Positions 11,240 through 42,034 of a stretch of 64,000 bases of DNA are shown here, piece after piece. Positions within the stretch are counted from its first letter, which is position 1. Each line of letters opens with the position of its first letter. The stretch is from Crambe crambe (lineage: Eukaryota > Porifera > Demospongiae > Poecilosclerida > Crambeidae). Below the pieces are notes generated by a model, which had not been told where the DNA came from, searched no databases, and worked only from the letters and a program-made list of their open reading frames with translations. The DNA is taken from NCBI GenBank assembly GCA_963924555.1, contig OZ004584.1, positions 2,231,001-2,295,000 of the forward strand, in the 5' to 3' direction. The position numbers and the translations under genes are program-made.

Positions 11240-12138
11240 CTAATTAGTCTTTCTGATTTTTTGTGCAATTGTTTGATCTGTGAATTCAATAGCTTCTGCT
11301 AGGCTTTCCCATGTTGGAGGAGGATTGACTCTCTTCAACCATTCAGCTAGCATTTCCCGTAAACAATCTGTTGGTGAGTTGTCACAGTCATACTTGATAT
11401 TCTTCAGTGAGTTATGCTCGATGCCCAGGAGAACACCTATATTCTACCAGTCATGAGCTATGGGGATGAGTATTTTGAATGAATCCTTCAGTGTTGGCAT
11501 TTCAGAGTAATCTCTACTTTTTTCAGACTCAGTTAGATGCCTCTCCTTCAGTAAATCTTGTAGTATTTGTTCATATCGATCGTATCTTTCTTCGAATTCG
11601 GATCTTGTAATAAAGTCAGGCATTATGTTTGTGTTTCCACTTGTAGATTCTCTCATGGATAGAATTCGTTTTCTAGACACTGTACAGGGAAAAGGACCCT
11701 TGCTGGATGAATAATCAATGGCACCATATTCGATGAGCAATTCTGATATTCTTTCATGTTTGCTTAGTTTGAGAGCTGTCATGCCATTACTTGTTATTGT
11801 GTTAACATCAGCTCCATATCTCATCAGGAGTTCTACTATCTCCATGTGTCCATTATAAACACCCATCATCAGAGCTGTCATTCCAAATATGTTCTGAAGG
11901 CTGACATCTGCTCCATGTTCAAGTAGAATGCTAGCAACCTCCTTCTTGCCAGTAAAGCAGCTCAACATCATAGGTGATGTTCCATTGACATCCTGAGCCC
12001 CTCGTTCCAGCAGTGAAATGATCACACTTAAGTGGCCATCTGGAACAGCCATCATATACTCCAGTAACAGTTCAATGAGTCTAATATGCTCTTCACTGGA
12101 GGCAATACTAAGTGCAAACGATCCTGAAGTGTCCTGGT
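11240..12138 (-). pseudogene. Ank0: 5'-truncated Ank-Death copy with a nonsense codon in the Death domain
   Basis: A partial copy of the neighbouring Ank-Death genes. Homology begins abruptly at about 12138, inside the motif QDTSGSFAL, where the coding sequence runs into minisatellite DNA. The copy then keeps the C-terminal ankyrin repeats and the PDFITRSEFEERYDRYEQI linker in an open frame. At 11444-11446 a CAG codon of the other copies has become TAG, just after LIPIAHDW. The same frame then continues for 67 more codons of intact Death domain (through TWESLAEAIEF) to the ancestral stop at 11240-11242. Several ankyrin segments are missing by in-frame deletion: after LLLEY, INIQ in GAQDVNG, and part of LSKHERIS. 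An ATG at 12160 opens a 238-residue frame, but its first residues come from the minisatellite. Probably a pseudogene; a short ankyrin-only protein is possible. Confidence 0.8.
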
Positions 12139-12640
12139 GGTCCTCTACAAGGTGTCCCAATTAGAGGTGCCCTTTACAGAGTGTCCCGATTAGAGGTGTC
12201 CTCTACAAGGTGTCCCGATTAGAGGTGTCCTCTACAAGGTGTCCCGATTAGAGGTGTCCTCTACGAGGTGTCCCGATTAGAGGTGTCCTCTACAAGGTGT
12301 CCCGATTAGAGGTGTCCTCTACGAGGTGTCCCGATTAGAGGTGTCCTCTACGAGGTGTCCCGGTTAGAGATGTCCTCTACAAGGTGTCCCGATTAGAGGT
12401 GTCCTCTACAAGGTGTCCCGATTAGAGGTGTCCTTTACAAGGTGTCCCAATTAGAGGTATCCTTATACTATAGGTAGAATGGGTGAATCGATAATAGTAA
12501 TGGGACAGAATAAAGTATCCTGATTAGAGAGTTGTCCTTGATAAAGTGTCCTGTGTCTTTATAATAATTGTGTCCTGATTAGAGAATATCTAACCTCTCA
12601 TGTAACAGCTGGTAATAGTGAGTAGTGTACAATTTCATCA
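12139..12640. repeat. 29-bp minisatellite between Ank0 and Ank1
   Basis: About 11 tandem units of GATTAGAGGTGTCCTCTACA + AGGTGTCCC (12139-12462). A diverged stretch follows (GGGTGAATCGATAATAGTAA, GTGTCCTGTGTCTTT) that is shared with the RhoGAP-containing spacers at 19600, 30480 and 36030. Its presence here marks the remnant of a duplication-unit spacer. Confidence 0.85.
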
Positions 12641-12721: not shown

Positions 12722-15700
12722 CTAATCAGTTTTTCTGATTTTTTGTGCAATCGTTTGATCTGTGAATTCAATAGCTTCTGCTAGGCTTTCCCATGTTGGA
12801 GGAGGATTGACTCTCTTCAACCATTCATCTAGCATTTCCCGTAAACAATCTCTTGCTGAGTTATCACAGTCATACTTGATAATCTTCAGTGAGTTAGGCT
12901 CGATGCCCAAAAGAACACCTATATTCTGCCAGTCATGAGCTATGGGAATGAGCATCGCGAATGATTCCTTCAGTGTTGGCTTTTCAGATTTGGTTGATTG
13001 TTTTTCCTTTTGAATATCTTCTAGTATTTTATCAATTTTTCGATCAAATTTTTCTTCTAATCGATTTAATCTTCTTTCGACTCTTGTAATAAAGTCAGGC
13101 ATTAAATTTGTATTTCCACTTACAAAATCTCTTGTGGATAGAACTCGCTTTCTAGGCACTGTATAGGGAAAAGGATTCTGCCAGTCATGAGCAATGGGAA
13201 TGAGTGGATGGAATGAATCCTTCAGTGTCAGCTTTTCAGAGTAATCTCTACTTCTTTCAGGCTCAGTTGGTTGCCTTTCCTTTAGTAAATCTTGTAGTAT
13301 TCGTTCATGTCGATTTAATCTTCCCTCAAATCTTGTGATAAAGTCAGGCATTATGCTTGTACTGTTCACACTTGCACAATCTCTTGTGGATAGAACCTGT
13401 TTTCTAGATACTGTACAGGGAGAAGGACCCTTGCTGGATGAATAATCAATGGCACCACATTCGATAAGGAATTCTGATATTCTTCCATGGTCATTATCTT
13501 TGCTTAGTTTGAGAGCTGTCATGCCATTGCTTGTCATTGTGTTTACATCAGCTCCATATCTCATCAGGAGTTCTACTATCTCCATGTGTCCATTATAAAC
13601 ACCCATCATCAGAGCTGTCATTCCAAACGTGTTCTGAAGGTTGACATCTGCTCCATGCTCGAGTAAAATACTGGCAACCTCCTTCTTGCCAGTAAAGCAG
13701 CTCAACATCAAAGCTGATGTGCCGTTGACATCCTGTATGTTAATCTGAGCCCCTCGTTCCAGCAGTGAAATGATCACACTTAAATGGCCATCTGCAGCAG
13801 CCATCATTAACGAAGTCCATCCTTTCGCATCTTGTAAATTGATCCTTGCTCCATAGCGCAGGAGCAGTTGACATATTTTGCCTTCACTGTCTTGTAAATC
13901 CACATGAGCTCTATGCTCCAGTAACAGTTCAATAAGTTTAATATTTTCTTCACTGGAGGCAATTCTAAGTGCAAACGATCCTGAAGTGTCCTGATGATTG
14001 ATGTCCAGTCCATTTTTTATTAATGTTGAAAGAATGTTCTTATAATTCAACCAGTTCACTTGATGTATCAGGTCTGTAATGTCTCTTGTTTCCTTTGAAG
14101 AAGCTGAAAGTAAAGTACCTTTACTAATAATAGTGATCAGGTATTTCCAATAGGTGGACCCACTGTCATCTGTTCTGTAGAGATCATCCACTTCCATTCC
14201 AAGTTGAAGGAGAAGCTCAACCATTTCTATCACACCAAATACACAGGCCAAATACAAGATGCTGGGCTTGGTGTGTTTTACACGTTCTAAAAGGTCAGCA
14301 TCATGAGCAAAAAGTAATCGAATAATCATATTATATCCTTCCCAAATGTGATTTGTACCAGTAGAAGCTGAACTCTTAAGAGTACTTACATCGATTCTTC
14401 TTTCATCTCTTGCTTTTGCTTGTAATAATATGATACTTCTCAGCAAGTAGAATAGATTTTGAACTTTAGCTCCACCTTCTAAGAGTAAGGATACTATTTC
14501 AACATTGCCACAAATCACTGCTTTGTCCAATGCACTCCCTTTTATATTGTGTTGGAGGTTAGGTGGCAGCAGTTCAGTCTGATGAGGCAGTTGATGCAGG
14601 GATTGATAATCTGTGAAGTTACTGATGTTAACTCGTGCTCCTGCTTTAAGAAGTAATTTCACTAATTCAGTATGTCCATGTAAACTTGCAAGCATCAAAG
14701 CGGTTTCTCCAAAATCATTGCATTGATCAATTTCAGATTCCAATATGTAAAAGTTTGTTTTTAAAATTTGATCCACAACTTCCCAATTATTGATGATACA
14801 TGCTAACATGAGAGCAGACCATCCACCTACGCTTTTTTTGGTTATATCAGCATCATACTTCAAAAGTAAGGACACTGTACTCATATTGTTACACATGATA
14901 GAAAGCATTAATGCTGTAAAACCCCTTTTATCTTGTAAATTGATATCTGCACCATGTTGAATAAGGAGCTGAATAATATTTATATGCTTGGCATGGGGAA
15001 CATCATGTGCCATAATTCCAGCACTTGTAGCTTTGGTGTTCAGTTTTTTCAATTCAGCATCCAAAAAAATTATACTTGCTAACATCAGGGATGTCAACCC
15101 ATTGATATCTTGCATGTTAACATGTGCACCATTTTGAAGCAGTAGAGCAACTGTTTCGGTGTGTCCATTCTGACTTGCAATCATTAAAGAAGAAAATCCA
15201 TCCTTCTCTTGCATATTAACGTGTGCACCATTTTGAAGCAGTAGAGCAACTGTTTCAGTATGTCCATTCTGACTTGCAATCATTAAAGAAGAAACTCCAT
15301 AGTTCTTTTGCATATTAACGTGTGCACCATTTTGAAGCAGTAGAGCAACTGTTTTGGCATGTCCATTCTGACTTGCAATCATTAATGAAGAAACTCCATT
15401 GTTCTTTTGCATATTAACGTGTGCACCATTTTGAAGCAGTAGAGCAACTATTTCGGTGTGTCCATTTTGACTTGCTATCATTAAAGAAAAAGATCCATTT
15501 TTATTTTGAATATTAACGTGTGCACTATTTTGAAGCAGTAGAGCAACTGTTTCGGTGTGTCCATTATGACTTGCAATCATTAAAGAAGAAACTCCATAGT
15601 TCTCTTGCATATTAACGTGTGCACCATTTTGAAGCAGTAGAGCAACTGTTTTGGTGTGTCCATTCTGACTTGCAATCATTAAAGAAGAAGATCCATTGTT

Positions 15701-17977
15701 CTCTTGCATATTAATGTGTACACCATTTTGAAGCAGCAGAGAAACTGTTTCGGTGTGTCCATTCTGACTGGCAATCATTAAAGAAGAAAATCCATTGTTC
15801 TCTTGCATATTAACGTGTGCACCATTTTGAAGCAGTAGAGCAACTGTTTCGCTGTGTCCATTCTTACTGGCAATTATTAAAGAAGAAAATCCATTGTTCT
15901 CTTGCATATTAACGTGTGCACCATTTTGAAGCAGTAGAGCAACTGTTTCGCTGTGTCCATTCTTACTGGCAATTATTAAAGAAGAAAATCCATTGTTCTC
16001 TTGCATATTAACGTGTGCACCATTTTGAAGCAGTAGAGCAACTGTTTCGGTGTGTCCATTATGACTTGCAATCATTAAAGAAGAAACTCCATTGTTTTTT
16101 TGCATATTAACGTGTGCACCATTTAGAAGCAGTAGAGCAACTGTTTTGGTGTGTCCATTATGACTTGCAATCATTAAAGAAGAAACTCCATAGTTCTTTT
16201 GCATATTAATGTGTGCACCATTTTGAAGCAGTAGAGCAACTGTTTTGGTGTGTCCATTCTGACTGGCAATTATTAAAGAAGAAAATCCATTGTTGTCTTG
16301 CATATCAACGTGTGCACCATTTTTAAGCAGTAGAGCAACTGTTTCAGTGTGTCCATTCTGACTTGCAATTATTAAAGAAGAAACTCCATTGTTCTCTTGC
16401 ATATCAACGTGTGCACCATTCTTAAGCAGTAGAGCAACTGTTTCGGTGTGTCCATGCTGACTTGTAATAATTAAAGAAGAAGATCCATTGTTCTCTTGCA
16501 TATTAACATGTGCACCATTTTGAAGCAGTAGAGCAACTGTTTCAGTATGTCCATTTTGACTGGCAATCATTAAAGAAGAAATTCCATAGTTCTCTTGCAT
16601 ATCAACGTGTGCACCATTCTGAAGCAGTAGAGCAACTGTTTCGGTGTGTCCATTATGACTTGCAATCATTAAAGAAGAAAATCCATAGTTCGCTTGCATA
16701 TTAACGTGTGCACCATTTTGAAGCAGTAGAGCAACTGTTTCAGTATGTCCATTCTGACTTGCAACCATTAAAGAAGAAACTCCATTGTTTCTTTGCATAT
16801 TAACGTGTGCACCATTTAGAAGCAGTAGAGCAACTGTTTTGGTGTGTCCATTATGACTTACAATCATTAAAGAAGAAATTCCATTGTTCTTTTGCATATT
16901 AACGTGTGCACCATTTTGAAGCAGTAGAGCAACTGTTTCGGTGTGTCCATTATGACTTGCAATCATTAAAGAAGAAACTCCATCCTTCTCTTGCATGTTA
17001 ACGTGTGCACCATTTTGAAGCAGTAGAGCAACTGTTTCAGTGTGTCCATTTAGACTTGCAATCATTAAAGAAGAATGTCCATTGTTCTCTTGAATATTAA
17101 TGCATGCACAATTTTGAAGCAGTAGAGCAACTGTTTCGGTGTGTCCATTCTGACTTGCAATCATCAAAGAAGAAAATCCATCGTTCTTTTGCATATCAAG
17201 ATGTGCACCATTTTGAAGCAGTAGAGCAACTGTTTCAGTGTGTCCATCATGACTTGCAATCATTAAAGAAGAAAATCCATAGTTCGCTTGCATATTAACG
17301 TGTGCACCATTTTGAAGCAGTAGAGCAACTGTTTCGCTGTGTCCATTCTTACTGGCAACCATTAAAGAAGAAAATCCATTGTTCTCTTGCATATCAACGT
17401 GTGCACCATTTTTAAGCAGTAGAGCAACTGCTTCGGTGTGTCCATTCAGACTTGCAATCATTAAAGAAGAAATTCCATTGTTCTCTTGCATATTAACTTG
17501 TGCACCATTTTGAAGCAGTAGAGCAACTGTTTCAGTGTGTCCATTCTGACTTGCAGTCATTAATGAAAAAAATCCATTGTTATCTTGCATATTAACTTGT
17601 GCACAATTTAAAATTAGTTGTTTAATTATTTCTGTATGCCCATAGAAACTTCCCATAATTAATGGAGATACTCCTCTATTGTTTCTTAAGTTTACTAGAT
17701 GCTTTGGATTTTGGACAACATTGAGTATAAGTTGTGCCACTTCAACATACCCTTGTCTGCAAGCACACATGAGGGCATGCTGTCCTTTATTGTTCTGTAG
17801 ATCAATCTTTATTCCAGGAACTTGAAGTAGCTCTTTAATATAGTCCACATTTCCATGTAGACAAGCGACCATCAACTGTGAACACTGCTGTCCATTGACT
17901 TCCACTAAACTATTAATGTCACTGCTTTTCTCTACAGCTAGAGCAAGGAGAGACTCATCTGACCAGCTTGTGTCCAT
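12722..17977 (-). CDS. Ank1: ankyrin-array / Death-domain protein, 1751 aa
   Basis: A long single-exon frame. Start chosen at MDTSWSDESL (17977): Ank2 and Ank3 start there with an in-frame TAG two codons upstream. In this copy a 7-bp insertion removes that stop and extends the frame 31 codons to 18070, but that part is not conserved. Residues 1-131 are an N-terminal cap with three divergent ankyrin repeats. Residues 132-956 are 25 near-identical 33-aa repeats of the SSLMIASQNGHTETVALLLQ type. About 957-1560 hold divergent ankyrin repeats and non-repeat loops. A charged linker and a C-terminal Death domain (last 80 residues; LREMLDEWLKR, TWESLAEAIEF) follow. There is no signal peptide or membrane segment from MDTSW, so it is probably a cytosolic scaffold or receptor-like adaptor. 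Oddities: a 13-residue gap at DSEG-KICQ and a duplicated linker. Death folds mediate apoptotic and immune signalling in animals; the ligand is unknown. Confidence 0.85.
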   Translation of the reverse strand: MDTSWSDESLLALAVEKSSDINSLVEVNGQQCSQLMVACLHGNVDYIKELLQVPGIKIDLQNNKGQHALMCACRQGYVEVAQLILNVVQNPKHLVNLRNNRGVSPLIMGSFYGHTEIIKQLILNCAQVNMQDNNGFFSLMTASQNGHTETVALLLQNGAQVNMQENNGISSLMIASLNGHTEAVALLLKNGAHVDMQENNGFSSLMVASKNGHSETVALLLQNGAHVNMQANYGFSSLMIASHDGHTETVALLLQNGAHLDMQKNDGFSSLMIASQNGHTETVALLLQNCACINIQENNGHSSLMIASLNGHTETVALLLQNGAHVNMQEKDGVSSLMIASHNGHTETVALLLQNGAHVNMQKNNGISSLMIVSHNGHTKTVALLLLNGAHVNMQRNNGVSSLMVASQNGHTETVALLLQNGAHVNMQANYGFSSLMIASHNGHTETVALLLQNGAHVDMQENYGISSLMIASQNGHTETVALLLQNGAHVNMQENNGSSSLIITSQHGHTETVALLLKNGAHVDMQENNGVSSLIIASQNGHTETVALLLKNGAHVDMQDNNGFSSLIIASQNGHTKTVALLLQNGAHINMQKNYGVSSLMIASHNGHTKTVALLLLNGAHVNMQKNNGVSSLMIASHNGHTETVALLLQNGAHVNMQENNGFSSLIIASKNGHSETVALLLQNGAHVNMQENNGFSSLIIASKNGHSETVALLLQNGAHVNMQENNGFSSLMIASQNGHTETVSLLLQNGVHINMQENNGSSSLMIASQNGHTKTVALLLQNGAHVNMQENYGVSSLMIASHNGHTETVALLLQNSAHVNIQNKNGSFSLMIASQNGHTEIVALLLQNGAHVNMQKNNGVSSLMIASQNGHAKTVALLLQNGAHVNMQKNYGVSSLMIASQNGHTETVALLLQNGAHVNMQEKDGFSSLMIASQNGHTETVALLLQNGAHVNMQDINGLTSLMLASIIFLDAELKKLNTKATSAGIMAHDVPHAKHINIIQLLIQHGADINLQDKRGFTALMLSIMCNNMSTVSLLLKYDADITKKSVGGWSALMLACIINNWEVVDQILKTNFYILESEIDQCNDFGETALMLASLHGHTELVKLLLKAGARVNISNFTDYQSLHQLPHQTELLPPNLQHNIKGSALDKAVICGNVEIVSLLLEGGAKVQNLFYLLRSIILLQAKARDERRIDVSTLKSSASTGTNHIWEGYNMIIRLLFAHDADLLERVKHTKPSILYLACVFGVIEMVELLLQLGMEVDDLYRTDDSGSTYWKYLITIISKGTLLSASSKETRDITDLIHQVNWLNYKNILSTLIKNGLDINHQDTSGSFALRIASSEENIKLIELLLEHRAHVDLQDSEGKICQLLLRYGARINLQDAKGWTSLMMAAADGHLSVIISLLERGAQINIQDVNGTSALMLSCFTGKKEVASILLEHGADVNLQNTFGMTALMMGVYNGHMEIVELLMRYGADVNTMTSNGMTALKLSKDNDHGRISEFLIECGAIDYSSSKGPSPCTVSRKQVLSTRDCASVNSTSIMPDFITRFEGRLNRHERILQDLLKERQPTEPERSRDYSEKLTLKDSFHPLIPIAHDWQNPFPYTVPRKRVLSTRDFVSGNTNLMPDFITRVERRLNRLEEKFDRKIDKILEDIQKEKQSTKSEKPTLKESFAMLIPIAHDWQNIGVLLGIEPNSLKIIKYDCDNSARDCLREMLDEWLKRVNPPPTWESLAEAIEFTDQTIAQKIRKTD
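15110..17584 (-). repeat. Ank1 homogenised 99-bp ankyrin-repeat array (25 units)
   Basis: 25 consecutive 99-bp units, each encoding one ankyrin repeat. Framework residues G4, L8, A11, G15, H16, V20, L22-L24, G27 and N31 are almost invariant. Positions 1 (E/K/D/A/R/N), 3 (N/D/Y), 5 (F/V/I/S/H), 13 (Q/H/K/L) and 25 (Q/K/L) vary. Units 17 and 18 are identical in protein. Unit 3-4 and unit 9-10 pairs resemble each other, which suggests block duplication. Plus-strand frames across the array are shadows. Confidence 0.9.
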
Positions 17978-18070
17978 TTGTAAATAGCTAACTCTTTGCA
18001 GAATGTGTACAAAGAGCAGCCAGAAAAAGGGGTGTGGGAGTTGTGTAAAAATTGTGGGTGGCAACCCCAA

Positions 18071-22088: not shown

Positions 22089-25000
22089 CTAATAAATTTT
22101 TCTGATTTTTTGTGCTATTGTTTGATCTATGAATTCAATAGCTTCTGCTAGGCTTTCCCATGTTGGAGGAGGACCGACTCTCTTCAACCATTGAGCTAGC
22201 ATTTCCCGTAAACAATCTCTTGCTGAGTTATAATCATGCTCAATATTTTTCAGTGAGTAATGCTCGATACCCAAAAGAGTACCTATATTCTGCCATTCAT
22301 GAGCTATGGGAATGAGCATTTTGAGTGAATCCTTCAGTGTCGGCTTTTTAGAGTAATCTATATGTGTCGGCTTTTCAGAGTAATCTCTACTTTTTTCAGG
22401 CTCAGTTGGTTGCCTTTCCTTCTTTAAATCTTGTAGTATTTGTTCAAATCGACCTAATCTTCCTTCGAATTCGGATCTTGTAATAAAGTCAGGCATTATG
22501 TTTGTGTTCCCACTTGCAGAATCTCTTGTGGATAGAACTTGTTTTCTAGACACTGTACAGGGAAAAGGACCCTTGCTGGATGAATAATTGATGGCACCAC
22601 ATTCGATAAGGAATTCTGATATCCTTCCATGGTCATTATCTTTGCTTAGTTTTAGAGCTGTCATGCCATTGCTTGTCATTGTGTTTATATCAGTTCCATA
22701 TCTCATCAGGAGTTCTACTATCTCCATGTGTCCATTATAAACACCCATCATCAGAGCTGTCATTCCAAATGTGTTCTGAAGGTTGACATCTGCTCCATGC
22801 TCGAATAGAATACTAGCAACCTCTTTCTTGCCAGTAAAGCAGCTCAACATCAAAGCTGATGTGCCATCGACATCCTGTATGTTAATCTGAGCCCCTCGTT
22901 CCAGCAGTGAAATGATCACACTTAAATGGCCATCTGGAACAGCCATCATCAACGAAGTCCATCCTTTGGCATCTTGTAAATCGATCCTTGCACCATAGCG
23001 CAGGAGCAGTTGACAAATTTTATCGTTTCCACTAACACATGCTTCCATTAAGCTGGAAATGCCATCACTGTCTTGTGAATTTACACGAGCTCTATGCTCA
23101 AGTAACAGTTCAATAAGTTTAACATGCTCTTCACTGGAGGCAATTCTAAGTGCAAACGATCCTGAAGTGTCCTGATGGTTAATATCCAGTCCATTTTTTA
23201 TCAATGTTGAAATGATGTTCTTATAATTCAACCAGTTCACTTGATGTATCAGGTCTGCTATGTCTCTTGTTTCTTTTGAAGAAGCTGAAAGTAAAGTACC
23301 TGTACTAATAATAGCGATCAGGTTGTTCCAATAGGTGGACTCACTGTCGTCTGTTCTATAGAGATCATCCACTTCCACTCCCAGTTGAAGAAGAATATCA
23401 ACCATTTCTATCACACCGAATGCACAGGCCAAGTACAAGATGCTGGGCTTGGTGTGTTTCACACGTTCTAAAAGGTCAGCATCATGAGCAAAAAGTAATT
23501 GAATAATCATATTATGGGCTTCCCAAGTGTCACTTGTATAAGTAGAAGCTGAACTCTTAAGAGCACCTAGATCGATTCTTGTTTCATCTCTTGCTTTTGC
23601 TTGTAATAATATGATACTTCTCAGCAAGTAGAATAGGTTTTGAACTTTAGCTCCACTTTCTAAGAGTAAGGATACTATTTCAACATTGCCACAAATCACT
23701 GCTTTGTCCAATGCACTCCCCTTTATATTGTGTTGAAGGTTAGGTGGCTGCAGTTCAATCTGATGAGGCAGTTGATGCAGGGATTGATAATCTGTGAAGT
23801 TACTGATGTTAACTCGTGCTCCTGCTTTAAGAAGTAATTTCACCACTTCAGTGTGTCCACGTAAACTTGCAAGCATCAAAGCAGTTTCTCCAGAATCATT
23901 GCATTGATCAAGTTCAGATTCCAATATGTAAAAGTTTGTTTTTAAAATTCGATCTACAACTTCCCGATTATCGATAAGACTTGCTAACATGAGAGCAGAC
24001 CATCCACCTACACTTTTTTTGGTTATATCAGCATCATACTTCAAAAGTAAGGACACTGTACTCATATTGTTGCATATAACTGAAAGCATTAATGCTGTAA
24101 AACCATTTTTATCTCGCAAATTGATATCTGCACCATATTGGATAAGGAGCTGAACACAATTTGTACTATTTAAATGCTTGGCATGGAGAACAGCATGAGC
24201 CATAATTTCAGCACTTGGAGCTTTGGTGTTCAGTTTTAGGAAAAAATCGTTCAATTCATCATCAGTAAAAATGATACTTGCTAACATTAAAGATGTCCAT
24301 CCGTTGATATTTTGCATGTTAACGTGTGCACCATTTTGAAGCAGTAGAGCAACTGTTTCGGTGTGTCCCTTTTGACTTGCAAACATTAAAGAAGAAATTC
24401 CATCCTTCTCTTGCATGTTAACGTGTGCACCATTTTGAAGCAGTAGAGCAACTGTTTTGGCATGTCCGTTCTGACTTGCAATCATTAATGAAGGAACTCC
24501 ATCGTTCTCTTGCATATTAATGTGTGCACCATTTTGAAGCAGCAGAGAAACTGTTTCGGTGTGTCCATTCTGACTGGCAATCATTAAAGAAGAAAATCCA
24601 TTGTTCTCTTGCATATTAACGTGTGCACCATTTTGAAGCAGTAGAAAAACTGTTTCGGTGTGTCCATTCTGACTGGCAATCATTAAAGAAGAAAATCCAT
24701 CGTTCTCTTGCATATTAACATTTGCACCATTTTGAAGCAGTAGAGCAACTGTTTCGCTGTGTCCATCCTTACTGGCAATTATTAAAGAAGAAAATCCATC
24801 GTTCTCTTGCATATTAACATGTGCACCATTTTGAAGCAGTAGAGCAACTGTTTCGGTGTGTCCATTCTCACTGGCAATTATTAAGGAAGAAAATCCATTG
24901 TTCTCTTGCATATTAACGTGTGCACCATTTTGAAGCAGTAGAGCAACTGTTTCGGTGTGTCCATTTTGACTTGCTATCATTAAAGAAGAAGATCCATTTT

Positions 25001-26483
25001 TATTTTGAATATTAACGTGTGCACCATTTAGAAGCAGTAGAGCAACTGTTTCGGTGTGTCTATTTCGACTTGCTATCATTAAAGAAGAAAATCCATTTTT
25101 ATTAATATTAACGTGTGCACCATTTTGAAGCAGTAGAGCAACTGTTTTGGTGTGTCCATTTTGACTTGCAATTATTAAAGAAGAAGATCCATTGTTCTCT
25201 TGCATATTAACGTGTGCACCATTTTGAAGCAGTAGAGCAACTGTTTCGGTGTGTCCATTTTGACTAGCTATCATTAAAGAAGAAGATCCATTTTTATTTT
25301 GAATATTAACGTGTGCACCATTTAGAAGCAGTAGAGCAACTGTTTCGGTGTGTCCATTTTGACTTGCAATCATTAAAGAAGAAACTCCATTGTTCTCTTG
25401 CATATTAATGTGTGCACCATTTTGAAGCAGTAGAAAAACTGTTTCGATGTGTCCATTTTGACTTGCTATCATTAAACAAGAAGATCCATTTTTATTTTGA
25501 ATATTAACGTGTGCACCATTTAGAAGCAGTAGAGCAACTGTTTCGGTGTGTCCATTTTGACTTGCAATCATTAAAGAAGAAGATCCACTGTTCTCTTGCA
25601 TATTAACGTGTGCACCATTTTGAAGCAGTAGAGCAACTGTTTCGGTGTGTCCATTATTACTTGCTATCATTAAAGAAGAAGATCCATTTTTATTTTCAAT
25701 ATTAACGTGTGCACCATTTTGAAGCAGTAGAGCAACTGTTTCGGTGTGTCCATTCTCACTGGCAATTATTAAAGAAGAAAATCCATTGTTCTCTTGCATA
25801 TCAACGTGTGCACCATTTTGAAGCAGTAGAGCAACTGTTTCGGTATGTCCATTCTGACTTGCAATCATTAAAGAAGAAGACCCATTGTTCCCTTGCATAT
25901 TAATGTGTGCACCATTTTGAAGCAATAGAGCAACTGTTTCGGTATGTCCATTCTGACTTGCAATCATTAAAGAAGAAGACCCATTGTTCCCTTGCATATT
26001 AATGTGTGCACCATTTTGAAGCAATAGAGCAACTGTTTCAGTGTGTCCATTTTGACTTGCAAACATTAAAGAAGAAAATCCATTGTTCTCTTGCATATTA
26101 ACTTGTGCACAATTTAAAATTAGTTGTTTAATTATTTCTGTATGCCCATAGAAACTTCCCATCATTAATGGAGATACTCCTATATTGTCTCTTAAGTTTA
26201 CTAGATGCTTTGGATTTTGGACAACATTGAGTATAAGCTGTGCCACTTCAACATACCCTTGTCCGCAAGCACACATGAGGGCATGCTGTCCTTTATTGTT
26301 CTGTAGATCAATCTTGATTCCAGGAACTTGAAGTAACTCTTCAACATAGTCTACATTTCCATGCAGACAAGCAACTATCAACTGTGAACACTGCTTTCCA
26401 TTGACTTCCACTAAACTATTAATGTCACTGCTTTTCTCTACAGCTAGAGCAAGGAGAGACTCATCTGACCAGCTTGTGTCCAT
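22089..26483 (-). CDS. Ank2: ankyrin-array / Death-domain protein, 1464 aa
   Basis: A single long frame. The start MDTSWSDESL is fixed by an in-frame TAG two codons upstream. Residues 1-131 are the N-terminal cap and divergent ankyrin repeats. About 132-724 hold 18 homogenised 33-aa repeats; one repeat is a residue short where HVNI joins NKNG. About 725-1290 hold divergent ankyrin repeats with loops, including SLMEACVSGNDKICQ, which Ank1 lacks. The linker (PDFITRSEFEGRLGRFEQIL) carries a tandem DYSEKPTHIDYSKKPT segment. The last 80 residues form the Death domain (HEWQNIGTLLGIE, LREMLAQWLKR, TWESLAEAIEF). A tetranucleotide (AATG)n tract lies just past the stop, as in Ank0 and Ank3. Signalling by death-fold assembly is expected from the family; the partner is unknown. 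Confidence 0.88.
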   Translation of the reverse strand: MDTSWSDESLLALAVEKSSDINSLVEVNGKQCSQLIVACLHGNVDYVEELLQVPGIKIDLQNNKGQHALMCACGQGYVEVAQLILNVVQNPKHLVNLRDNIGVSPLMMGSFYGHTEIIKQLILNCAQVNMQENNGFSSLMFASQNGHTETVALLLQNGAHINMQGNNGSSSLMIASQNGHTETVALLLQNGAHINMQGNNGSSSLMIASQNGHTETVALLLQNGAHVDMQENNGFSSLIIASENGHTETVALLLQNGAHVNIENKNGSSSLMIASNNGHTETVALLLQNGAHVNMQENSGSSSLMIASQNGHTETVALLLLNGAHVNIQNKNGSSCLMIASQNGHIETVFLLLQNGAHINMQENNGVSSLMIASQNGHTETVALLLLNGAHVNIQNKNGSSSLMIASQNGHTETVALLLQNGAHVNMQENNGSSSLIIASQNGHTKTVALLLQNGAHVNINKNGFSSLMIASRNRHTETVALLLLNGAHVNIQNKNGSSSLMIASQNGHTETVALLLQNGAHVNMQENNGFSSLIIASENGHTETVALLLQNGAHVNMQENDGFSSLIIASKDGHSETVALLLQNGANVNMQENDGFSSLMIASQNGHTETVFLLLQNGAHVNMQENNGFSSLMIASQNGHTETVSLLLQNGAHINMQENDGVPSLMIASQNGHAKTVALLLQNGAHVNMQEKDGISSLMFASQKGHTETVALLLQNGAHVNMQNINGWTSLMLASIIFTDDELNDFFLKLNTKAPSAEIMAHAVLHAKHLNSTNCVQLLIQYGADINLRDKNGFTALMLSVICNNMSTVSLLLKYDADITKKSVGGWSALMLASLIDNREVVDRILKTNFYILESELDQCNDSGETALMLASLRGHTEVVKLLLKAGARVNISNFTDYQSLHQLPHQIELQPPNLQHNIKGSALDKAVICGNVEIVSLLLESGAKVQNLFYLLRSIILLQAKARDETRIDLGALKSSASTYTSDTWEAHNMIIQLLFAHDADLLERVKHTKPSILYLACAFGVIEMVDILLQLGVEVDDLYRTDDSESTYWNNLIAIISTGTLLSASSKETRDIADLIHQVNWLNYKNIISTLIKNGLDINHQDTSGSFALRIASSEEHVKLIELLLEHRARVNSQDSDGISSLMEACVSGNDKICQLLLRYGARIDLQDAKGWTSLMMAVPDGHLSVIISLLERGAQINIQDVDGTSALMLSCFTGKKEVASILFEHGADVNLQNTFGMTALMMGVYNGHMEIVELLMRYGTDINTMTSNGMTALKLSKDNDHGRISEFLIECGAINYSSSKGPFPCTVSRKQVLSTRDSASGNTNIMPDFITRSEFEGRLGRFEQILQDLKKERQPTEPEKSRDYSEKPTHIDYSKKPTLKDSLKMLIPIAHEWQNIGTLLGIEHYSLKNIEHDYNSARDCLREMLAQWLKRVGPPPTWESLAEAIEFIDQTIAQKIRKIY
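24312..26090 (-). repeat. Ank2 homogenised 99-bp ankyrin-repeat array (18 units)
   Basis: 18 units encoding near-identical ankyrin repeats. Units 2 and 3 share the GNNGSSSLMIASQNG variant and are almost identical at DNA level. A NKNG(S/F)SSLMIAS variant recurs (units 5, 7, 9, 11, 12), often alternating with ENNG units, a sign of two-unit duplication. One unit is 96 bp. Confidence 0.9.
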
Positions 26484-34794: not shown

Positions 34795-34795
34795 T

Positions 34796-34862
<67 letters not shown>
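34795..34862. repeat. (AG)n microsatellite, unit C
   Basis: Pure AG tract in the duplicated intron. Confidence 0.95.
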
Positions 34863-34867
<5 letters not shown>

Positions 34868-34875
34868 GGACTGAC

Positions 34876-35172: not shown

Positions 35173-35249
35173 CGAGTAGCACATGAAACATTTTTGGATC
35201 CACAGTTAGTTCTTTGGTGTGGATCAAAAAATGTTTCATGTGCTACTCG
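35173..35249. repeat. Hairpin with 31-bp arms, unit C
   Basis: Copy of the 29528-29604 hairpin with one substitution in the right arm (GGATCAAAAAATG). Confidence 0.85.
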
Positions 35250-35261
35250 TTCACACTTGAC

Positions 35262-36445: not shown

Positions 36446-37149
36446 TACAACTCGTATAAAGTTCTGCATTTATGTATGGAGTATTATAAATGTCAAACAA
36501 ATAATATTATTACTATTGACACACATGGCACCCTATTTTTTGTTCACGTATAATGGACTGGCTGTATTTATAGATGGAGCACTCTATTTATATATGAAGG
36601 GTTCCATTTAGCTATATGGAGTGCTCCATTTCTAAATGGAGGCTGCATTTATAACACATTTGGCGCCCCATACTTGAGGGGTGAGTGGAATATTGACCCT
36701 TTGTTCTTTATGCACCAGAACTCCTTTAGATATACAACCCAACATGTGAAATTTAATAAAAGAAGACATTCAAGCTGCATGTAAGTTATGTAATCCTTAT
36801 CATATTCTCCTGATATAACTTTCATCCCCCTATAGCTAAATTTTTAGCTGGGGTGAAAATGGTAATGAAATTTAGAATGCTACACATGGGATATAATGCA
36901 TGATATCAGCAGGGAATTCATGCATACATGTGAAATGTATTTTGAATGTAGCTCAACTCATAAAAGAATAAAATGTACTGATTAGAGAGGTGTCCTTAAT
37001 AAAGTGTCCTGATTAGAGGTGTCCTTGTGTCCTGTGTCTGTGTAATAATCAAGATGCTTTGATGTAGCATTCAAGGGCATTACGTTGCTGTTGTACTAAT
37101 ATCAGCCTCTAGCATGATGTAATGGCTAATTAAACACAGGAATTTAAAT

Positions 37150-37222: not shown

Positions 37223-40200
37223 CTAATTAGTTTTTCTGATTTTTTGTGCAATCGTTTGATCTGTGAATTCAATAGCTTCTGCTAGGCTTTCCCATGTTGG
37301 AGGAGGATTGACTCTCTTTAACCATTCAGATAACATTTCCCGTAAACAATCTTTCGGTATGTTATCATAATTATACTCAATATTCTTCAGTGAGTTATGC
37401 TCAATGCCCAAGAGAACACCTATATTCTGCCAGTCATGAGCTATGGAAATAAGCATTTGAAATGAATCCTTCAGTGTCGGCTTTTCAGAGTAATCTATAT
37501 GTGTCGGCTTTTCAGAGTAATCTCTACTTTTTTCAGGCTCAGTTGGTTGCCTTTCCTTCTTTAAATCTTGTAGTATTTGTTCAAATCGACCTAATCTTCC
37601 TTCAAATTCGGATCTTGTAATAAAGTCAGGCATTATGTTTGTGTTCCCACTTGCAGAATCTCTTGTGGATAGAACTCGTTTTCTAGACACTGTACAGGGA
37701 AAAGGACCCTTGCTGGATGAATAATTGATGGCACCACATTCGATAAGGAATCCTGATATTCTTCCATGGCCATTATCTTTGCTTAGTTTGAGAGCTGTCA
37801 TGCCATTGCTTGTCATTGTGTTTACATCAGCTCCATATCTCATCAGGAGTTCTACTATCTCCATGTGTCCATTATAAACACCCATCATCAGAGCTGTCAT
37901 TCCAAACGTGTTCTGAAGGTTGACATCTGCTCCATGCTCGAGTAGAATACTAGCAACCGCCTTCTTGCCAGTAAAGCAGCTCAACATCAAAGCTGATGTG
38001 CCGTTGACATCCTGTATGTTAATCTGAGCCCCTCGTTCCAGCAGTGAAATGATCACACTTATGTGGCCATCTGGAACAGCCATCATCAACGAAGTCCATC
38101 CTTTGGCATCTTTTAAATCGATCCTTGCTCCATAGCGCAGGAGCAGTTGACAGATTTTATTGTTTCCACTAACGCTTGCTTCCATTAGGCTGGAAATGCC
38201 TTCACTGTCTTGTAAATTTACACAAGCTCTATATTCCAGTAACAGTTCAATGAGTTTAATATGCTCTTCACTGGAGGTAATACTAAGTGCAAACAATCCT
38301 GAAGTGTCCTGATGGTTGATGTCCAGTCCATTCTTTATTAATGTTGAAATGATGTTCTTATAATTCAACCAGTTCACTCGATGTATCAGGTCTGCAATGT
38401 CTCTTGTTTCCTTTGAAGCAGCTGAAAGTAAAGTACCTTTACTAATAATAGTGATCAGGTTGTTCCAATAGGTGGACCCACTGTCGTCTGTTCTATAGAG
38501 ATCATCCACTTCCACTCCCAGTTGAAGAAGAAGCTCGACCATTTCTATCACACCAAATGCACAGGCCAAATACAAGATGCTGGGCTTGGTATGTTTCACA
38601 CGTTCTAAAAGGTCAGCATCATGAGCAAAAAGTAATTGAATAATCTTATTATGTGCTTCCCAAATATCACTTGTACCAGCAGAAGCTGAACTCTTAAGAG
38701 CACCTACGTCGATTCTTGTTTCATCTCTTGCTTTTGCTTGTGATAATATGATACTTCTCAGCAAGTAGAATAGGTTTTGAACTTTAGCTCCACCTTCTAG
38801 AAGTACGGATACTATTTCGACATTGCCACGAATCACTGCTTTGTCCAATGCACTCCCCTTTATATTGTGTTGGAGGTTAGGTGGCAGCAGTTCAGTCTGA
38901 TGAGGTAGTTGATGCAGGGATTGATAATCTGTGAAGTTACTGATGTTAACTTGTGCTCCTGCTTTAAGAAGTAATTTCACTGCTTCAGTGTGTCCATGTA
39001 AACTTGCAAACATCAAAGCAGTTTCTCCAGAATAATTGCGTTGATCAATTTCAGATTCCAATATGTAAAAGTTTATTTTTAAAATTCGATCCACAGCTTC
39101 CCGAGCAGACCATCTACCTACACTTTTTTTGGTTATATCAGCATCATACTTCAAAAATCTATTGTTCTTTTGCATATTAACATGTGCACCATTTCGAAGC
39201 AGTAGAGCAACTGTTTTGGTGTGTCCATTCCGACTTGCAAACATTAAAGAAGAAAATCCATTGTTATTTTGCGTATTAATGCGTGCACCATTTTGAAGCA
39301 GTAGAGCAACTGTTTTGGTGTGTCCATTCCGACTTGCAATTATTAAAGAAGAATATCTATTGTTCTCTTGCATATTAACGTGTGCACCATTTTGAAGCAG
39401 TAGAGCAACTGTTTCGGTGTGTCCATTCTGACTGGCAATTATTAAAGAAGAAAATCCATTGTTCTCTTGCATATTAACGTGTGCACCATTTTGAAGCAGT
39501 AGAGCAACTGTTTCGGTGTGTCCATTCTGACTTGCAATCATTAAAGAAGATCCATCGTTCTTTTGCATATTAACATGTGCACCATTTTGAAGCAGTAGAG
39601 CAACTGTTTCGGTGTGTCCATTCTGACTGGCAATTATTAAAGAAGAAAATCCATTGTTCTCTTGCATATTAACGTGTGCACCATTTTGAAGCAGTAGAGC
39701 AACTGTTTCGGTGTGTCCATTCTGACTTGCAATCATTAAAGAAGAACATCCATTGTTCTTTTGCATATTAGCATGTGCACCATTTTGAAGCAGTAGAGCA
39801 ACTGTTTCAGTGTGTCCCTTATGACTTGCAATCATTAAAGAAGAAAATCCATCGTTCTCTTGCATATTAACATGTGCACCATTTTGAAGCAGTAGAGCAA
39901 CTGCTTCGGTGTGTCCATTCTCACTTGCAATGATTAAAGAGAAAAGTCCATCGTTCTCTTGCATATTAACGTGTGCACCATTTTGAAGCAGTAGAGCAAC
40001 TGTTTCAGTGTGTCCCTTATGACTTGCAATCATTAAAGAAGAAAATCCATTGTTCCCTTGCATATTAATGTGTGCACCATTCTTGAGCAGTAGAGCAACT
40101 GTTTCGGTGTGTCCATTTTGACTTGCAATCATTAAAGAAGAAAATCCATCATTATTTTGCATATTAATGTGTGCACCATTTCGAAGCAGTAGAGCAACTG

Positions 40201-42034
40201 TTTCGGTGTGCCTATTCTGGCTTGCAATCATTAAAGAAGAAAATCCATTGTTCTTTTGCATATTAATGTGTGCACCATTTTGAAGCAGTAGAGCAACTGT
40301 TTCGGTGTGTCCATTGTGACTTGCAATCATTAAAGAAGAAGATCTATTGTTCTCTTGCATATTAACGTGTGCCCCATTTCGAAGCAGTAAAGCAACTGTT
40401 TCGGTGTGTCCATTTTGACTTGCAATCATTAAAGAAGAAGATCCATTGTTCTTTTGCATATTAATGTGTGCACCATTTTGAAGCAGTAGAGCAACTGTTT
40501 CAGTATGTCCATTTTGACTTGCAATCATTAAAGAAGAAAATCCATTGTTCCCTTGCATATTAACATGTATACCATTTTGAAGCAGTAGAGCAACTGTTTC
40601 AGTGTGTCCATTCTGACTTGCAATCATTAAAGAAGAAGATCCATTGTTTTTTTGCATATTAATGTGTGCACCATTCTTGAGCAGTAGAGCAACTGTTTCG
40701 GTGTGTCCATTTTGACTTGCAATCATTAAAGAAGAAAATCCATCATTATTTTGCATATTAACGTGTGCACCATTTCGAAGCAGTAGAGCAACTGTTTCGG
40801 TGTGCCTATTCTGACTTGCAATCATTAAAGAAGAAAATCCATTGTTCTTTTGCATATTAACGTGTGCACCATTTTGAAGCAGTAGAGCAACTGTTTCGGT
40901 GTGTCCATTGTGACTTGCAATCATTAAAGAAGAAGATCTATTGTTCTCTTGCATATTAACGTGTGCCCCATTTTGAAGCAGTAAAGCAACTGTTTCAGTG
41001 TGTCCATTCTGACTTGCAATCATTAAAGAAGAAGATCCATTGTTTTTTTGCATATTAATGTGTGCACCATTCTTGAGCAGTAGAGCAACTGTTTCGGTGT
41101 GTCCATTTTGACTTGCAATCATTAAAGAAGAAAATCCATCATTATTTTGCATATTAACGTGTGCACCATTTTGAAGCAGTAGAGCAACTGTTTCGGTGTG
41201 TCCATTTTCACTTGCAATTATTAAAGAAGAAGATCCGTTGTTCTTTAGCATATTAATGTGTGCACCATTTTGAAGCAGTAGAGCAACTGTTTCAGTGTGT
41301 CCATTTTGACTTGCAATCATTAAAGAAGAAAATTCATTGTTTTCTTGCATATTAACGTGTGCCCCATTTTGAAGCAGTAGAGCAACTGTTTCGGTGTGTC
41401 CATTTTGACTTGCAATCATTAAAGAAGAAGATCCACTGTTCTTTTGCATATTAACGTGTGCACCATTTTGAAGCAGTAGAGCAACTGTTTCGGTGTGTCC
41501 ATTTTGACTTGCAATCATTAAAGAAGAAAATCCGTTGTTCTTTAGCATATTAATGTGTGCACCATTTTGAAGCAGTAGAGCAACTGTTTCAGTGTGTCCA
41601 TTTTGACTTGCAATTATTAAAGAAGAAGTTCCTTTGTTCTCTTGCATATTAACTTGTGCACAATTTAAAATTAGTTGTTTAATTATTTCTGTATGCCCAT
41701 AGAAACTTCCCATCATTAATGGAGATACTCCTCTATTATTTCTTAAGTTTACTAGATGCTTTGGATTTTGGACAACATTGAGTATAAGTTGTGCCACTTC
41801 AACATACCCTTGTCTGCAAGCACACGTGAGAGCATGCTCTCCTTTATTGTTCTGTAGATCAATCTTGATTCCAGGAACTTGAAGTAACTCTTCAACATAG
41901 TTCACATTTCCATGCAGACAAGCCACCATCAACTGTGAACACTGTTGTCCATTGACTTCCACTAAACTATCGATATCACTACTTTTCTCTACAGCTAGAG
42001 CAAGGAGAGACTCATCTGACCAGCTTGTGTCCAT
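37223..42034 (-). CDS. Ank3: ankyrin-array / Death-domain protein, 1603 aa
   Basis: A single long frame; start MDTSWSDESL, with an in-frame TAG two codons upstream. Residues 1-131 are the cap and divergent ankyrin repeats. About 132-955 hold 25 homogenised 33-aa repeats, one lacking a residue (KNDGSSLM). A deletion then fuses the array directly to KYDADITKKS, removing roughly 100 residues that Ank1 and Ank2 have (SLMLASIIF... to ...SLL). A further 27-bp loss follows at GRWSA-REAVDRIL. Both keep the frame. Divergent ankyrin repeats, a linker with the doubled DYSEKPT segment, and the Death domain (HDWQNIGVLLGIE, LREMLSEWLKR, TWESLAEAIEF) complete it. It is the closest Ank gene to the ARHGAP gene. 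Function is inferred only from family: death-fold adaptor or receptor-like scaffold. Confidence 0.88.
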   Translation of the reverse strand: MDTSWSDESLLALAVEKSSDIDSLVEVNGQQCSQLMVACLHGNVNYVEELLQVPGIKIDLQNNKGEHALTCACRQGYVEVAQLILNVVQNPKHLVNLRNNRGVSPLMMGSFYGHTEIIKQLILNCAQVNMQENKGTSSLIIASQNGHTETVALLLQNGAHINMLKNNGFSSLMIASQNGHTETVALLLQNGAHVNMQKNSGSSSLMIASQNGHTETVALLLQNGAHVNMQENNEFSSLMIASQNGHTETVALLLQNGAHINMLKNNGSSSLIIASENGHTETVALLLQNGAHVNMQNNDGFSSLMIASQNGHTETVALLLKNGAHINMQKNNGSSSLMIASQNGHTETVALLLQNGAHVNMQENNRSSSLMIASHNGHTETVALLLQNGAHVNMQKNNGFSSLMIASQNRHTETVALLLRNGAHVNMQNNDGFSSLMIASQNGHTETVALLLKNGAHINMQKNNGSSSLMIASQNGHTETVALLLQNGIHVNMQGNNGFSSLMIASQNGHTETVALLLQNGAHINMQKNNGSSSLMIASQNGHTETVALLLRNGAHVNMQENNRSSSLMIASHNGHTETVALLLQNGAHINMQKNNGFSSLMIASQNRHTETVALLLRNGAHINMQNNDGFSSLMIASQNGHTETVALLLKNGAHINMQGNNGFSSLMIASHKGHTETVALLLQNGAHVNMQENDGLFSLIIASENGHTEAVALLLQNGAHVNMQENDGFSSLMIASHKGHTETVALLLQNGAHANMQKNNGCSSLMIASQNGHTETVALLLQNGAHVNMQENNGFSSLIIASQNGHTETVALLLQNGAHVNMQKNDGSSLMIASQNGHTETVALLLQNGAHVNMQENNGFSSLIIASQNGHTETVALLLQNGAHVNMQENNRYSSLIIASRNGHTKTVALLLQNGARINTQNNNGFSSLMFASRNGHTKTVALLLRNGAHVNMQKNNRFLKYDADITKKSVGRWSAREAVDRILKINFYILESEIDQRNYSGETALMFASLHGHTEAVKLLLKAGAQVNISNFTDYQSLHQLPHQTELLPPNLQHNIKGSALDKAVIRGNVEIVSVLLEGGAKVQNLFYLLRSIILSQAKARDETRIDVGALKSSASAGTSDIWEAHNKIIQLLFAHDADLLERVKHTKPSILYLACAFGVIEMVELLLQLGVEVDDLYRTDDSGSTYWNNLITIISKGTLLSAASKETRDIADLIHRVNWLNYKNIISTLIKNGLDINHQDTSGLFALSITSSEEHIKLIELLLEYRACVNLQDSEGISSLMEASVSGNNKICQLLLRYGARIDLKDAKGWTSLMMAVPDGHISVIISLLERGAQINIQDVNGTSALMLSCFTGKKAVASILLEHGADVNLQNTFGMTALMMGVYNGHMEIVELLMRYGADVNTMTSNGMTALKLSKDNGHGRISGFLIECGAINYSSSKGPFPCTVSRKRVLSTRDSASGNTNIMPDFITRSEFEGRLGRFEQILQDLKKERQPTEPEKSRDYSEKPTHIDYSEKPTLKDSFQMLISIAHDWQNIGVLLGIEHNSLKNIEYNYDNIPKDCLREMLSEWLKRVNPPPTWESLAEAIEFTDQTIAQKIRKTN
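39170..41641 (-). repeat. Ank3 homogenised 99-bp ankyrin-repeat array (25 units)
   Basis: 25 units. A four-unit block (KNNGSSS, ENNRSSS, KNNGFSS with NRH, NNDGFSS) occurs at units 7-10 and again at 13-16, a 396-bp higher-order duplication. The unit variants NRHTETV and LLLRNG mark the block. Framework residues are nearly fixed. Confidence 0.9.

What the first reader, a model, noticed from the sequence alone, without database searches (positions are those of the whole stretch)
11240..42034. Local family of Ank-array / Death-domain genes as a candidate diversifying recognition system
Seen: three intact single-exon genes and one broken copy in tandem on one strand. All have a conserved cap, a highly repetitive ankyrin array that differs in unit number (25, 18, 25) and order, and a conserved Death domain. 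Known: Death domains recruit signalling partners in apoptosis and immunity, and ankyrin arrays bind proteins. Inference: repeat shuffling joined to a constant signalling tail resembles the logic of variable innate receptors such as LRR-based ones. No ligand or function is shown by the sequence.
Basis: partly seen in the sequence, partly recalled or inferred. Interest (0 to 1): 0.8.

Follow-up and report, generated by a model that had tools for sequence, protein, structure and literature searches.

The report
Sponge ankyrin-Death genes with reshuffled arrays
A probable sponge genome carries a small cluster of genes in which a reshuffled ankyrin-repeat region, likely a binding surface, is joined to a cell-death signalling domain, a design reminiscent of fungal self/non-self receptors but with no known target here.

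Summary
Three long minus-strand frames (12722-18070, 22089-26486, 37223-42037) each carry a cap, 25/18/25 near-identical 33-residue ankyrin (Ank) units and a Death domain; 11240-12160 is a broken copy without cap or array. A paralogue 78 kb away has about 3 units. Unit order between the three genes is no better than shuffled, although their post-array parts are 85-89% identical to g2 and dN/dS outside the Death domain is 0.07-0.42. Variation is greatest at positions 1, 3, 5 and 13, on the Ank ligand-binding face. Positive selection is only hinted at: no site survives correction. The Death domain evolves fastest of four parts measured, so it is not a 'constant tail'. Related cap-plus-array modules lie upstream of ZU5-like frames elsewhere on the contig and after NACHT-LRR on another. 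A silicatein exon supports 'sponge'. Best reading: a family of intracellular Ank-Death receptors or adaptors evolving like fungal high-identity Ank/WD NLR arrays (PMC4986451). Polymorphism, expression, ligand and immune function are untested; neutral repeat turnover is a close rival.

The parts
12722..17977 (-). g1: Ank-Death gene, ATG at 17977, stop at 12722 (the open frame runs to 18070)
17585..17977 (-). g1 N-terminal cap
15110..17584 (-). g1 array of 25 homogenised Ank units
12734..12967 (-). g1 Death domain (a partly duplicated linker/Death segment lies just upstream)
22089..26483 (-). g2: Ank-Death gene
26091..26483 (-). g2 cap
24312..26090 (-). g2 array of 18 Ank units
22098..22337 (-). 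g2 Death domain
37223..42034 (-). g3: Ank-Death gene
41642..42034 (-). g3 cap
39170..41641 (-). g3 array of 25 Ank units, with an internal block duplication (units 7-10 like 13-16)
37235..37471 (-). g3 Death domain
11240..12160 (-). broken copy: late Ank repeats, linker and Death domain with one in-frame TAG; no cap, no array

Best explanation
A lineage-specific tandem family of intracellular Ank-Death proteins in a probable sponge. Shown: arrays of near-identical Ank units that differ in number and order between paralogues, while cap, middle and C-terminal Ank parts are under purifying selection; in g1-g3 amino-acid differences lean to hairpin-tip and inner-helix positions. Inferred: unequal crossing-over and conversion between 99-bp units (frame-neutral, since 99 bp = 33 codons) remodel the arrays in the germ line and yield new combinations of a concave binding surface; ligand binding on the array exposes or clusters the C-terminal Death domain, which nucleates a PIDD/RIPK1-type Death-domain assembly leading to cell death or NF-kB-like signalling. 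The ligand class would be microbial or symbiont proteins, or alternatively self/non-self markers.
For: Architecture. Unit numbers 25, 18, 25 in g1-g3 and about 3 in g4 (by eye; the strict pattern counted 1), although g4's post-array part is 85% identical to g2's. Order lost among g1-g3: the best register is equalled or beaten by 228, 477 and 434 of 500 shuffles. Homogenisation: nearest unit in the same array 47.2 of 68, shuffled mean 22.4, 0 of 2000 shuffles reach it (g1-g3 only). Block duplication within g3. dN/dS 0.07-0.42 for cap, middle and C-terminal Ank in all 6 pairs of g1-g4. The four most variable positions are 5, 1, 13 and 3 in each of g1, g2 and g3, all in the binding-face set; pooled piN binding/other exposed 2.58, bootstrap 1.96-3.68, against 1.28 in the diverged C17 relative. 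Death domain: Pfam; best PDB matches PIDD E=9e-4 and RIPK1 E=0.0035. AlphaFold model of g2's post-array part: Ank-like helix pairs at pLDDT mostly 70-90; six helices in the Death region but at pLDDT under 50. Setting: 150 Death and 150 NACHT-like places, both lists capped at 150 scored. Related cap + array after NACHT-LRR on C18 and upstream of ZU5-like frames at C6 4.5 Mb. In two other sponges Ank- and DEATH-containing genes are up-regulated by microbial patterns (PMC6208332, passages; not shown to be this family).
Against: Positive selection is not established: array piN/piS at binding positions 0.78 (0.57-1.09); no site survives 33 tests (position 30 p=0.004, mostly a V/I change; position 5 p=0.019); g3 alone gives 0.45. 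The binding-face set was fixed after I had seen the units, and position 1 was added by me to the recalled DARPin set; without it p is 0.078, 0.025 and 0.027 for g1-g3. The lean is not uniform or special: of 5 other arrays tested, C18 (p=0.27) and L015 (p=0.22) do not show it, L020 (0.009) and L012 (0.048) do, and the non-homogenised C17 also does (0.047; 0.022 without position 1) though with a smaller ratio. Homogenisation is not universal: in L012, 0 of 10 units are nearest to their own array. Mean unit divergence within g1-g3 (0.093-0.105) is hardly below that between them (0.097-0.102). Fast horizontal divergence of repeats is general in proteins (PMC5120217, passages). No expression, polymorphism or ligand data; no NACHT in these genes.
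Confidence: 0.45

Rival explanations
1. Neutral repeat turnover: the array is a coding minisatellite on a scaffold or adaptor protein. Unequal crossing-over homogenises and reorders units; fold-critical positions are constrained, and the hairpin tips vary because little selects on them.
For: piN/piS at binding positions is near 0.8, not clearly above 1; no corrected hit in the site test; horizontal dN/dS of repeats is generally relaxed (PMC5120217, passages); the non-homogenised C17 array leans the same way and C18 and L015 do not lean significantly; many other minisatellites lie in the window.
Against: In the window arrays other exposed positions (17, 18, 21, 25, 26, 29, 32) are 2.6 times less variable at nonsynonymous sites than the binding positions, which plain relaxation of surface sites does not predict. 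Cap and C-terminal Ank are under purifying selection. The frame stays open through 18-25 units in three genes.
Confidence: 0.37
2. Ordinary Death-domain regulator (in the manner of ANKDD1A or the ANK-DD tail of NF-kB p105, both recalled): long Ank arrays bind a fixed partner and the family grew by local duplication without a recognition role.
For: Ank repeats plus a C-terminal Death domain is an existing animal architecture (recalled; one search showed only search listings and abstract starts for ANKDD1A). The Death domain resembles those of PIDD and RIPK1.
Against: A fixed partner should preserve unit order, which is lost among g1-g3. Arrays range from about 3 to 25 units among close paralogues.
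Confidence: 0.12
3. Decaying tandem family: duplicates on the way to pseudogenes, with the lesions outside the array as early decay.
For: Broken copy 11240-12160 with a stop; another broken copy at C6:2691-2693 kb with stops; in-frame deletions in g1 and g3 seen by eye.
Against: Frames of 1465-1782 codons open; dN/dS 0.07-0.42 in cap, middle and C-terminal Ank for all 6 pairs of g1-g4; upstream sequence looks alike by eye in the four genes (not measured).
Confidence: 0.06

Closest known systems
Fungal NLRs with high-internal-conservation ANK/WD/TPR arrays (Podospora HNWD family, Pa_3_8560; PMC4986451: section 17 read whole, passages)
   Same: Near-identical tandem repeats, repeat-number variation, homogenisation, variable sites on hairpin and inner helix of the concave Ank face.
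   Different: The fungal genes carry NACHT/NB-ARC, differ between wild isolates and have sites under positive selection. Here the window genes have no NTPase, the comparison is among paralogues of one genome, and positive selection is not significant. Kingdom and signalling domain differ.
ANKDD1A/B-type animal proteins (architecture recalled, not from a call)
   Same: Ank repeats followed by a C-terminal Death domain.
   Different: Here: large homogenised arrays, a tandem family, an extra middle region and linker. Orthology not tested.
Ankyrins / PIDD (ZU5-Death proteins; architecture recalled)
   Same: Ank array and Death domain; the Death domain's best PDB match is PIDD.
   Different: No ZU5 reported by Pfam at E<=0.001 in the window genes. 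Separate frames near relatives at C6 4.5 Mb match ZU5 below Pfam's cut-off.
Sponge NLRs (Dysidea avara repertoire: 128 DEATH, 230 NACHT genes; PMC12909245, passages)
   Same: Large Death/NACHT repertoire; NACHT-Ank and NACHT-Zu5 architectures are mentioned there.
   Different: The window genes have no NACHT. The word 'ankyrin' does not occur in that paper's main text, and the passages I saw do not treat array homogenisation.
LRR-based variable receptors
   Same: Repeat array joined to a conserved part.
   Different: Different repeat type; nothing in the sequence suggests somatic assembly.

Membership tests
Fungal-type high-internal-conservation (HiC) repeat receptors | Repeats over 85% identical across at least 100 aa | tested here: inconclusive
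   Mean identity to array consensus 0.88-0.90; mean pairwise 0.81-0.84; 4-unit windows at or above 0.85: 3 of 22 (g1), 0 of 15 (g2), 11 of 22 (g3), 23 of 34 (C18). Their exact measure was not reproduced.
Fungal-type high-internal-conservation (HiC) repeat receptors | Repeat-number polymorphism between individuals | not testable with these tools
   One genome only. Among paralogues: 25, 18, 25 and about 3.
Fungal-type high-internal-conservation (HiC) repeat receptors | Variable sites on the concave binding face | tested here: met
   g1-g3: top four positions 5, 1, 13, 3; binding vs other exposed exact p 0.039, 0.013, 0.014; 0.078, 0.025, 0.027 with position 1 dropped. Positions are assigned by recalled consensus numbering, not from a solved structure. 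Not met in C18 and L015; the C17 control is also at 0.047.
Fungal-type high-internal-conservation (HiC) repeat receptors | Positive diversifying selection on those sites | tested here: inconclusive
   Position 5 p=0.019 and position 30 p=0.004 in the pooled set, uncorrected for 33 sites.
Fungal-type high-internal-conservation (HiC) repeat receptors | NACHT or NB-ARC NTPase | tested here: not met
   No such Pfam match in g1-g3. NACHT present in the C18 relative.
NLR (NOD-like receptor) | NACHT domain | tested here: not met
Ankyrin family (ANK-ZU5-UPA-Death) | ZU5 domain between Ank and Death | tested here: not met
   No ZU5 in g1-g3 at E<=0.001
ANKDD1-type Ank-Death proteins | Ank repeats plus C-terminal Death domain and no other recognised domain | tested here: met
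   The remaining Pfam rows are further Ank-type models (KRIT1, LRRK2) or scattered hits (DUF7320, DUF2195, Flavodoxin_1, Imm_superinfect) whose best stretches lie in the array and which, but for one Ank_KRIT1 stretch in g3, have no stretch that passes on its own.
ANKDD1-type Ank-Death proteins | Orthology by tree | not tested
   No animal proteomes were available in the tools used
Death domain superfamily | Significant profile match | tested here: met
   g1 8.9e-7, g2 7.5e-10, g3 6.7e-7, all above the cut-off (100-aa pieces)

The most novel reading that the evidence does not exclude
An animal counterpart of the fungal HET/HNWD system: a germline-remodelled cap-plus-Ank recognition cassette, hypervariable on its binding face, that has been mounted on at least three signalling chassis in one sponge genome (linker-Death in the window, ZU5-like/Death at C6 4.5 Mb, NACHT-LRR on C18), providing polymorphic recognition of microbes or of other sponge individuals and triggering Death-domain signalling.
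Probability: 0.25. Interest if true: 0.87.

Novelty: new variant of a known kind. Interest (0 to 1): 0.6.

Why it matters
Sponges tell self from non-self and live with dense microbial communities, and candidate molecules with enough diversity for the task are few (recalled). If these arrays vary between individuals, this would be an animal receptor family generating diversity by array remodelling as fungal incompatibility NLRs do, and it would suggest that the trick works on a plain Ank-Death protein without an NTPase. It also makes a sharp, cheap test possible: long-read typing of four arrays.

Tried and rejected
Rejected: membership in NLRs or ankyrins (no NACHT or ZU5 in g1-g3). A 'constant' Death tail. 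Conserved unit order between g1, g2 and g3, though the last units of g1 and g2 differ at only 5% of bases, so array ends may be partly kept. An N-terminal Death domain in the C18 NLR-like frame is unproven: Pfam gave none at E<=1 for that piece and the PDB search only a chance hit; of two homologues scanned, L036 has a marginal one (22.4 bits, cut-off 22.6) and L032 none. The C18 array runs on past the end of its frame (frame ends at L023:6365, TRF array to 6630), so that gene may be frameshifted at its 3' end; what follows looks by eye like mobile-element coding. A targeted mutator was considered by eye only and not tested. Rfam and tRNA scans of the window found nothing. Paper searches aimed at this family or at homogenised Ank-Death arrays in animals: 1 of 1 listed; 15 of 76; 12 of 14; 12 of 19; 5 of 5; 10 of 13; 12 of 14; 6 of 6; I saw titles and abstract starts only, and none names such a family. 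That is an open-licence library and partial listings, so absence from print is not claimed. The structure job for g2's post-array region finished only: mean pLDDT 65.9, pTM 0.54, Death region under 50; no fold search was run on it. A second job (cap plus array) never started. Arrays put through the variability tests: g1, g2, g3, C18, L020, L012, L015, C17 (8); other fetched cap relatives (L013, L014, L016-L019, L021, L022, L025, L026, g4) were not.
Full report
What is there. The window (C6:2231001-2295000 of an unnamed 143-Mb, 119-contig genome) has three minus-strand frames of at least 250 aa: g1 1782, g2 1465 and g3 1604 aa. Each has the same cap (MDTSWSDESLLALA...), then 25, 18 or 25 near-identical 33-aa Ank units, then a middle region, more regular Ank repeats, a linker and a Death domain. 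Pfam calls Death above its cut-off in all three. The fourth copy, 11240-12160, keeps only late Ank repeats, linker and Death domain, with a TAG in the Death domain. Sequence between g2 and g3 holds a local duplication of its own (28150-31375 like 33754-36912, 89%). An AlphaFold model of g2 residues 700-1465 from a 5-sequence alignment shows Ank-like helix pairs through most of the post-array part (pLDDT mostly 70-90), a lone helix in the linker and six helices in the Death region, the last at pLDDT under 50, so it adds little on the Death fold.

Which organism. A search for papain-family proteases and a fetch led to an exon in L045 whose best PDB match is silicatein alpha 6zq3 (E=3e-14, ahead of a cathepsin-silicatein chimera and cathepsins); it carries CGASYAFSA, i.e. 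serine in place of the catalytic cysteine (the meaning of that change is recalled). A second exon, L044, is nearly tied between silicatein and fibroinase or cathepsins and keeps the cysteine. This supports a demosponge; the species was not identified.

The family. The middle region (210 aa, a mixed query) gives ten matches: five full-length (g1, g2, g3, a fourth gene g4 at C6:2351-2354 kb, and a diverged relative on C17, 1590 aa, 52%), two that together make a broken copy at C6:2691-2693 kb, and three weak ones (E 3e-4 or worse). g4 is 903 aa with about 3 array units by eye (the strict pattern counted 1). A wider circle shares the cap at 54-70%: a cluster at C6 4.49-4.77 Mb and places at C6 2.4-2.7 Mb and on C18, C15 and C17. 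A 31-base unit core (up to 2 mismatches) matches 236 times in the genome and 0 times in the reversed control (only the first places are listed).

Array dynamics. Mean nucleotide divergence is 0.093-0.105 between units within g1, g2 and g3 and 0.097-0.102 between them, so the means barely differ. Units are nevertheless nearest to units of their own array in 47.2 of 68 cases (ties shared), against 22.4 +/- 4.4 after shuffling (0 of 2000 reach it). This is not universal: among the relatives, 34 of 37 C18 units and 21 of 23 L015 units are nearest only to their own array, but 10 of 18 in L020 and 0 of 10 in L012. There is no shared order among g1-g3: the best register of each pair is equalled or beaten by 228, 477 and 434 of 500 shuffles. 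A block of units 7-10 in g3 recurs as 13-16. The rest of the genes is still alike: post-array identities to g2 are 86, 89 and 85% for g1, g3 and g4, and 50% for C17. The Death domain is the exception at 0.34-0.65.

Where the variation sits. In consensus numbering (position 1 = the D of DxxGxTPLH, recalled) the most variable positions are 5, 1, 13 and 3 in pooled units and, in differing order, in each of g1, g2 and g3. These are hairpin-tip and inner-helix positions; 3, 5 and 13 are among those randomised in DARPins (2, 3, 5, 13, 14, 33, recalled), and I added position 1 after seeing the units. The chance that the top 4 of 33 all fall in a set of 7 is 0.0009, but core positions are constrained in any Ank protein, so the fairer test compares binding with other exposed positions. 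Exact p with position 1: g1 0.039, g2 0.013, g3 0.014, L020 0.009, L012 0.048, C18 0.27, L015 0.22 and, for the non-homogenised C17, 0.047 (8 arrays, all shown; the C17 set of 24 units holds one repeat from outside its array). Without position 1: 0.078, 0.025, 0.027, 0.015, 0.085, 0.45, 0.32 and 0.022. The entropy ratio binding/exposed is 1.9-3.7 in g1-g3 but only 1.3-1.4 in C18, L015 and C17. Pooled piN in g1-g3 is 2.58 times higher at binding than at other exposed positions (bootstrap 1.96-3.68), and piN/piS is 0.78 (0.57-1.09) against 0.46 (0.36-0.60) at all other positions. A per-site codon test that I wrote (FEL-like, on a FastTree tree, kappa fixed at 2, recombination ignored) marks positions 5 (p=0.019) and 30 (p=0.004) as positive in the pooled set, and 7, 11, 12, 16, 17, 22, 29 and 31 as negative at p<0.1. 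Neither positive survives 33 tests, and position 30 is mostly V/I. Binding piN/piS is 1.65 in g1, 0.98 in g2, 0.45 in g3. I read this as a real lean to the binding face in the window genes, partly shared by ordinary Ank arrays, with positive selection unproven.

Link to other immune-type genes. On C18 a 2905-aa frame has NACHT (E=1e-23), LRRs, then a cap-like stretch matching from residue 15 of the cap and 37 Ank units. Its units are nearer to the C6 4.5-Mb arrays (0.11-0.14) than to the window's (0.16-0.18). The array runs past the end of the frame, so the 3' end may be frameshifted. At C6 4.5 Mb, 4 of 4 separate downstream frames scanned (L013, L015, L017, L020) match ZU5 below Pfam's cut-off, while the long cap-array frames L012, L019, L022 and L025 gave no ZU5 at E<=0.001; in L015 a Death domain lies further downstream (E=3e-7). 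Exon joins were not proven. On C15, L028 is an Ank-Roc-Death frame (Roc at 25.1 bits, cut-off 27). The Death search returned 150 places over the cut-off and the search with the C18 NACHT 150 places, both capped lists; one NACHT-like frame lies at C6:2323 kb between g3 and g4.

How it probably works. Shown: architecture, array differences between paralogues, constraint on the rest, and the lean of variation. From established knowledge (recalled): Ank solenoids bind proteins on that face, and Death domains assemble into oligomers. The nearest solved Death domains are PIDD (E=9e-4) and RIPK1 (E=0.0035). Inferred: ligand-driven clustering of the Death domain, and a recognition role. Sponge papers report Ank- and DEATH-containing genes induced by microbial patterns (PMC6208332, passages) and Ank-repeat genes among those responding to LPS (PMC8242945, passages), which fits but does not concern this family.

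What is known. The closest system by working is the set of fungal NLRs with near-identical ANK/WD/TPR repeats: repeat-number polymorphism among five wild isolates, sites under positive selection, concave-face location (PMC4986451; section 17 read whole, passages). The same paper puts such repeats at 0.8% of metazoan repeats. By membership the window genes fail the NTPase criterion and cannot be tested for polymorphism. Hence: works like, plausibly; member, no. By architecture they are Ank-Death proteins of the ANKDD1 sort (recalled).

Verdict. A clear case of array reorganisation in an animal Ank-Death family; immune or allorecognition function is a hypothesis with a cheap test. Interest 0.60.

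Noticed in passing
L027:2651-5000 and L023:1-6365 (C18:5181651-5190365): 2905-aa frame with NACHT, repetitive 28-residue LRRs (84-bp array, about 17.7 copies) and a cap-plus-Ank array of the window family; the array continues past the end of the frame.
   Followed up: partly
L028 (C15:1490001-1498000) and further long frames at C15:1.39-1.69 Mb: Death-domain matches inside long open frames (several of 2002-2557 aa); the one fetched, L028, is Ank-Roc-Death, like a DAPK/ROCO protein without a kinase hit.
   Followed up: partly
34 places matched by the C18 N-terminal segment, e.g. L032, L036: NLR-like frames, many 1200-2900 aa long, on C21, C10, C16, C9 and C1. L032 has Ig domains (I-set E=1.5e-21); L036 has NACHT, a marginal Death and a weak Ig match. 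Only these two were scanned.
   Followed up: partly
L045 (C15:871601-873100) and L044 (C9:8678801-8681000): L045 holds a silicatein exon (serine for cysteine); L044 a cathepsin/silicatein-like exon that keeps the cysteine. Both lie in clusters of papain-family exons.
   Followed up: partly
L029 (C9:8063001-8070000): Frame with a Death-like match and a serine-rich repeat of the STGSHLSVDSGLVGSRHS type; another repetitive array beside a Death domain. No Pfam scan was made.
   Followed up: no
12140-12463, 19462-19593, 30021-30254, 35657-35787: A 29-bp minisatellite, similar by eye in the four places, recurs between the genes and might mark duplication breakpoints.
   Followed up: no
28150-31375 and 33754-36912: Duplication of intergenic sequence (89% identical), parts also at 44496-45977.
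   Followed up: no
49240-49602: PH-domain exon on the minus strand (E=2.7e-6); an unrelated neighbouring gene.
   Followed up: partly
53999-54608 and 61854-62512: Short satellites (periods 140 bp and about 61 bp).
   Followed up: no
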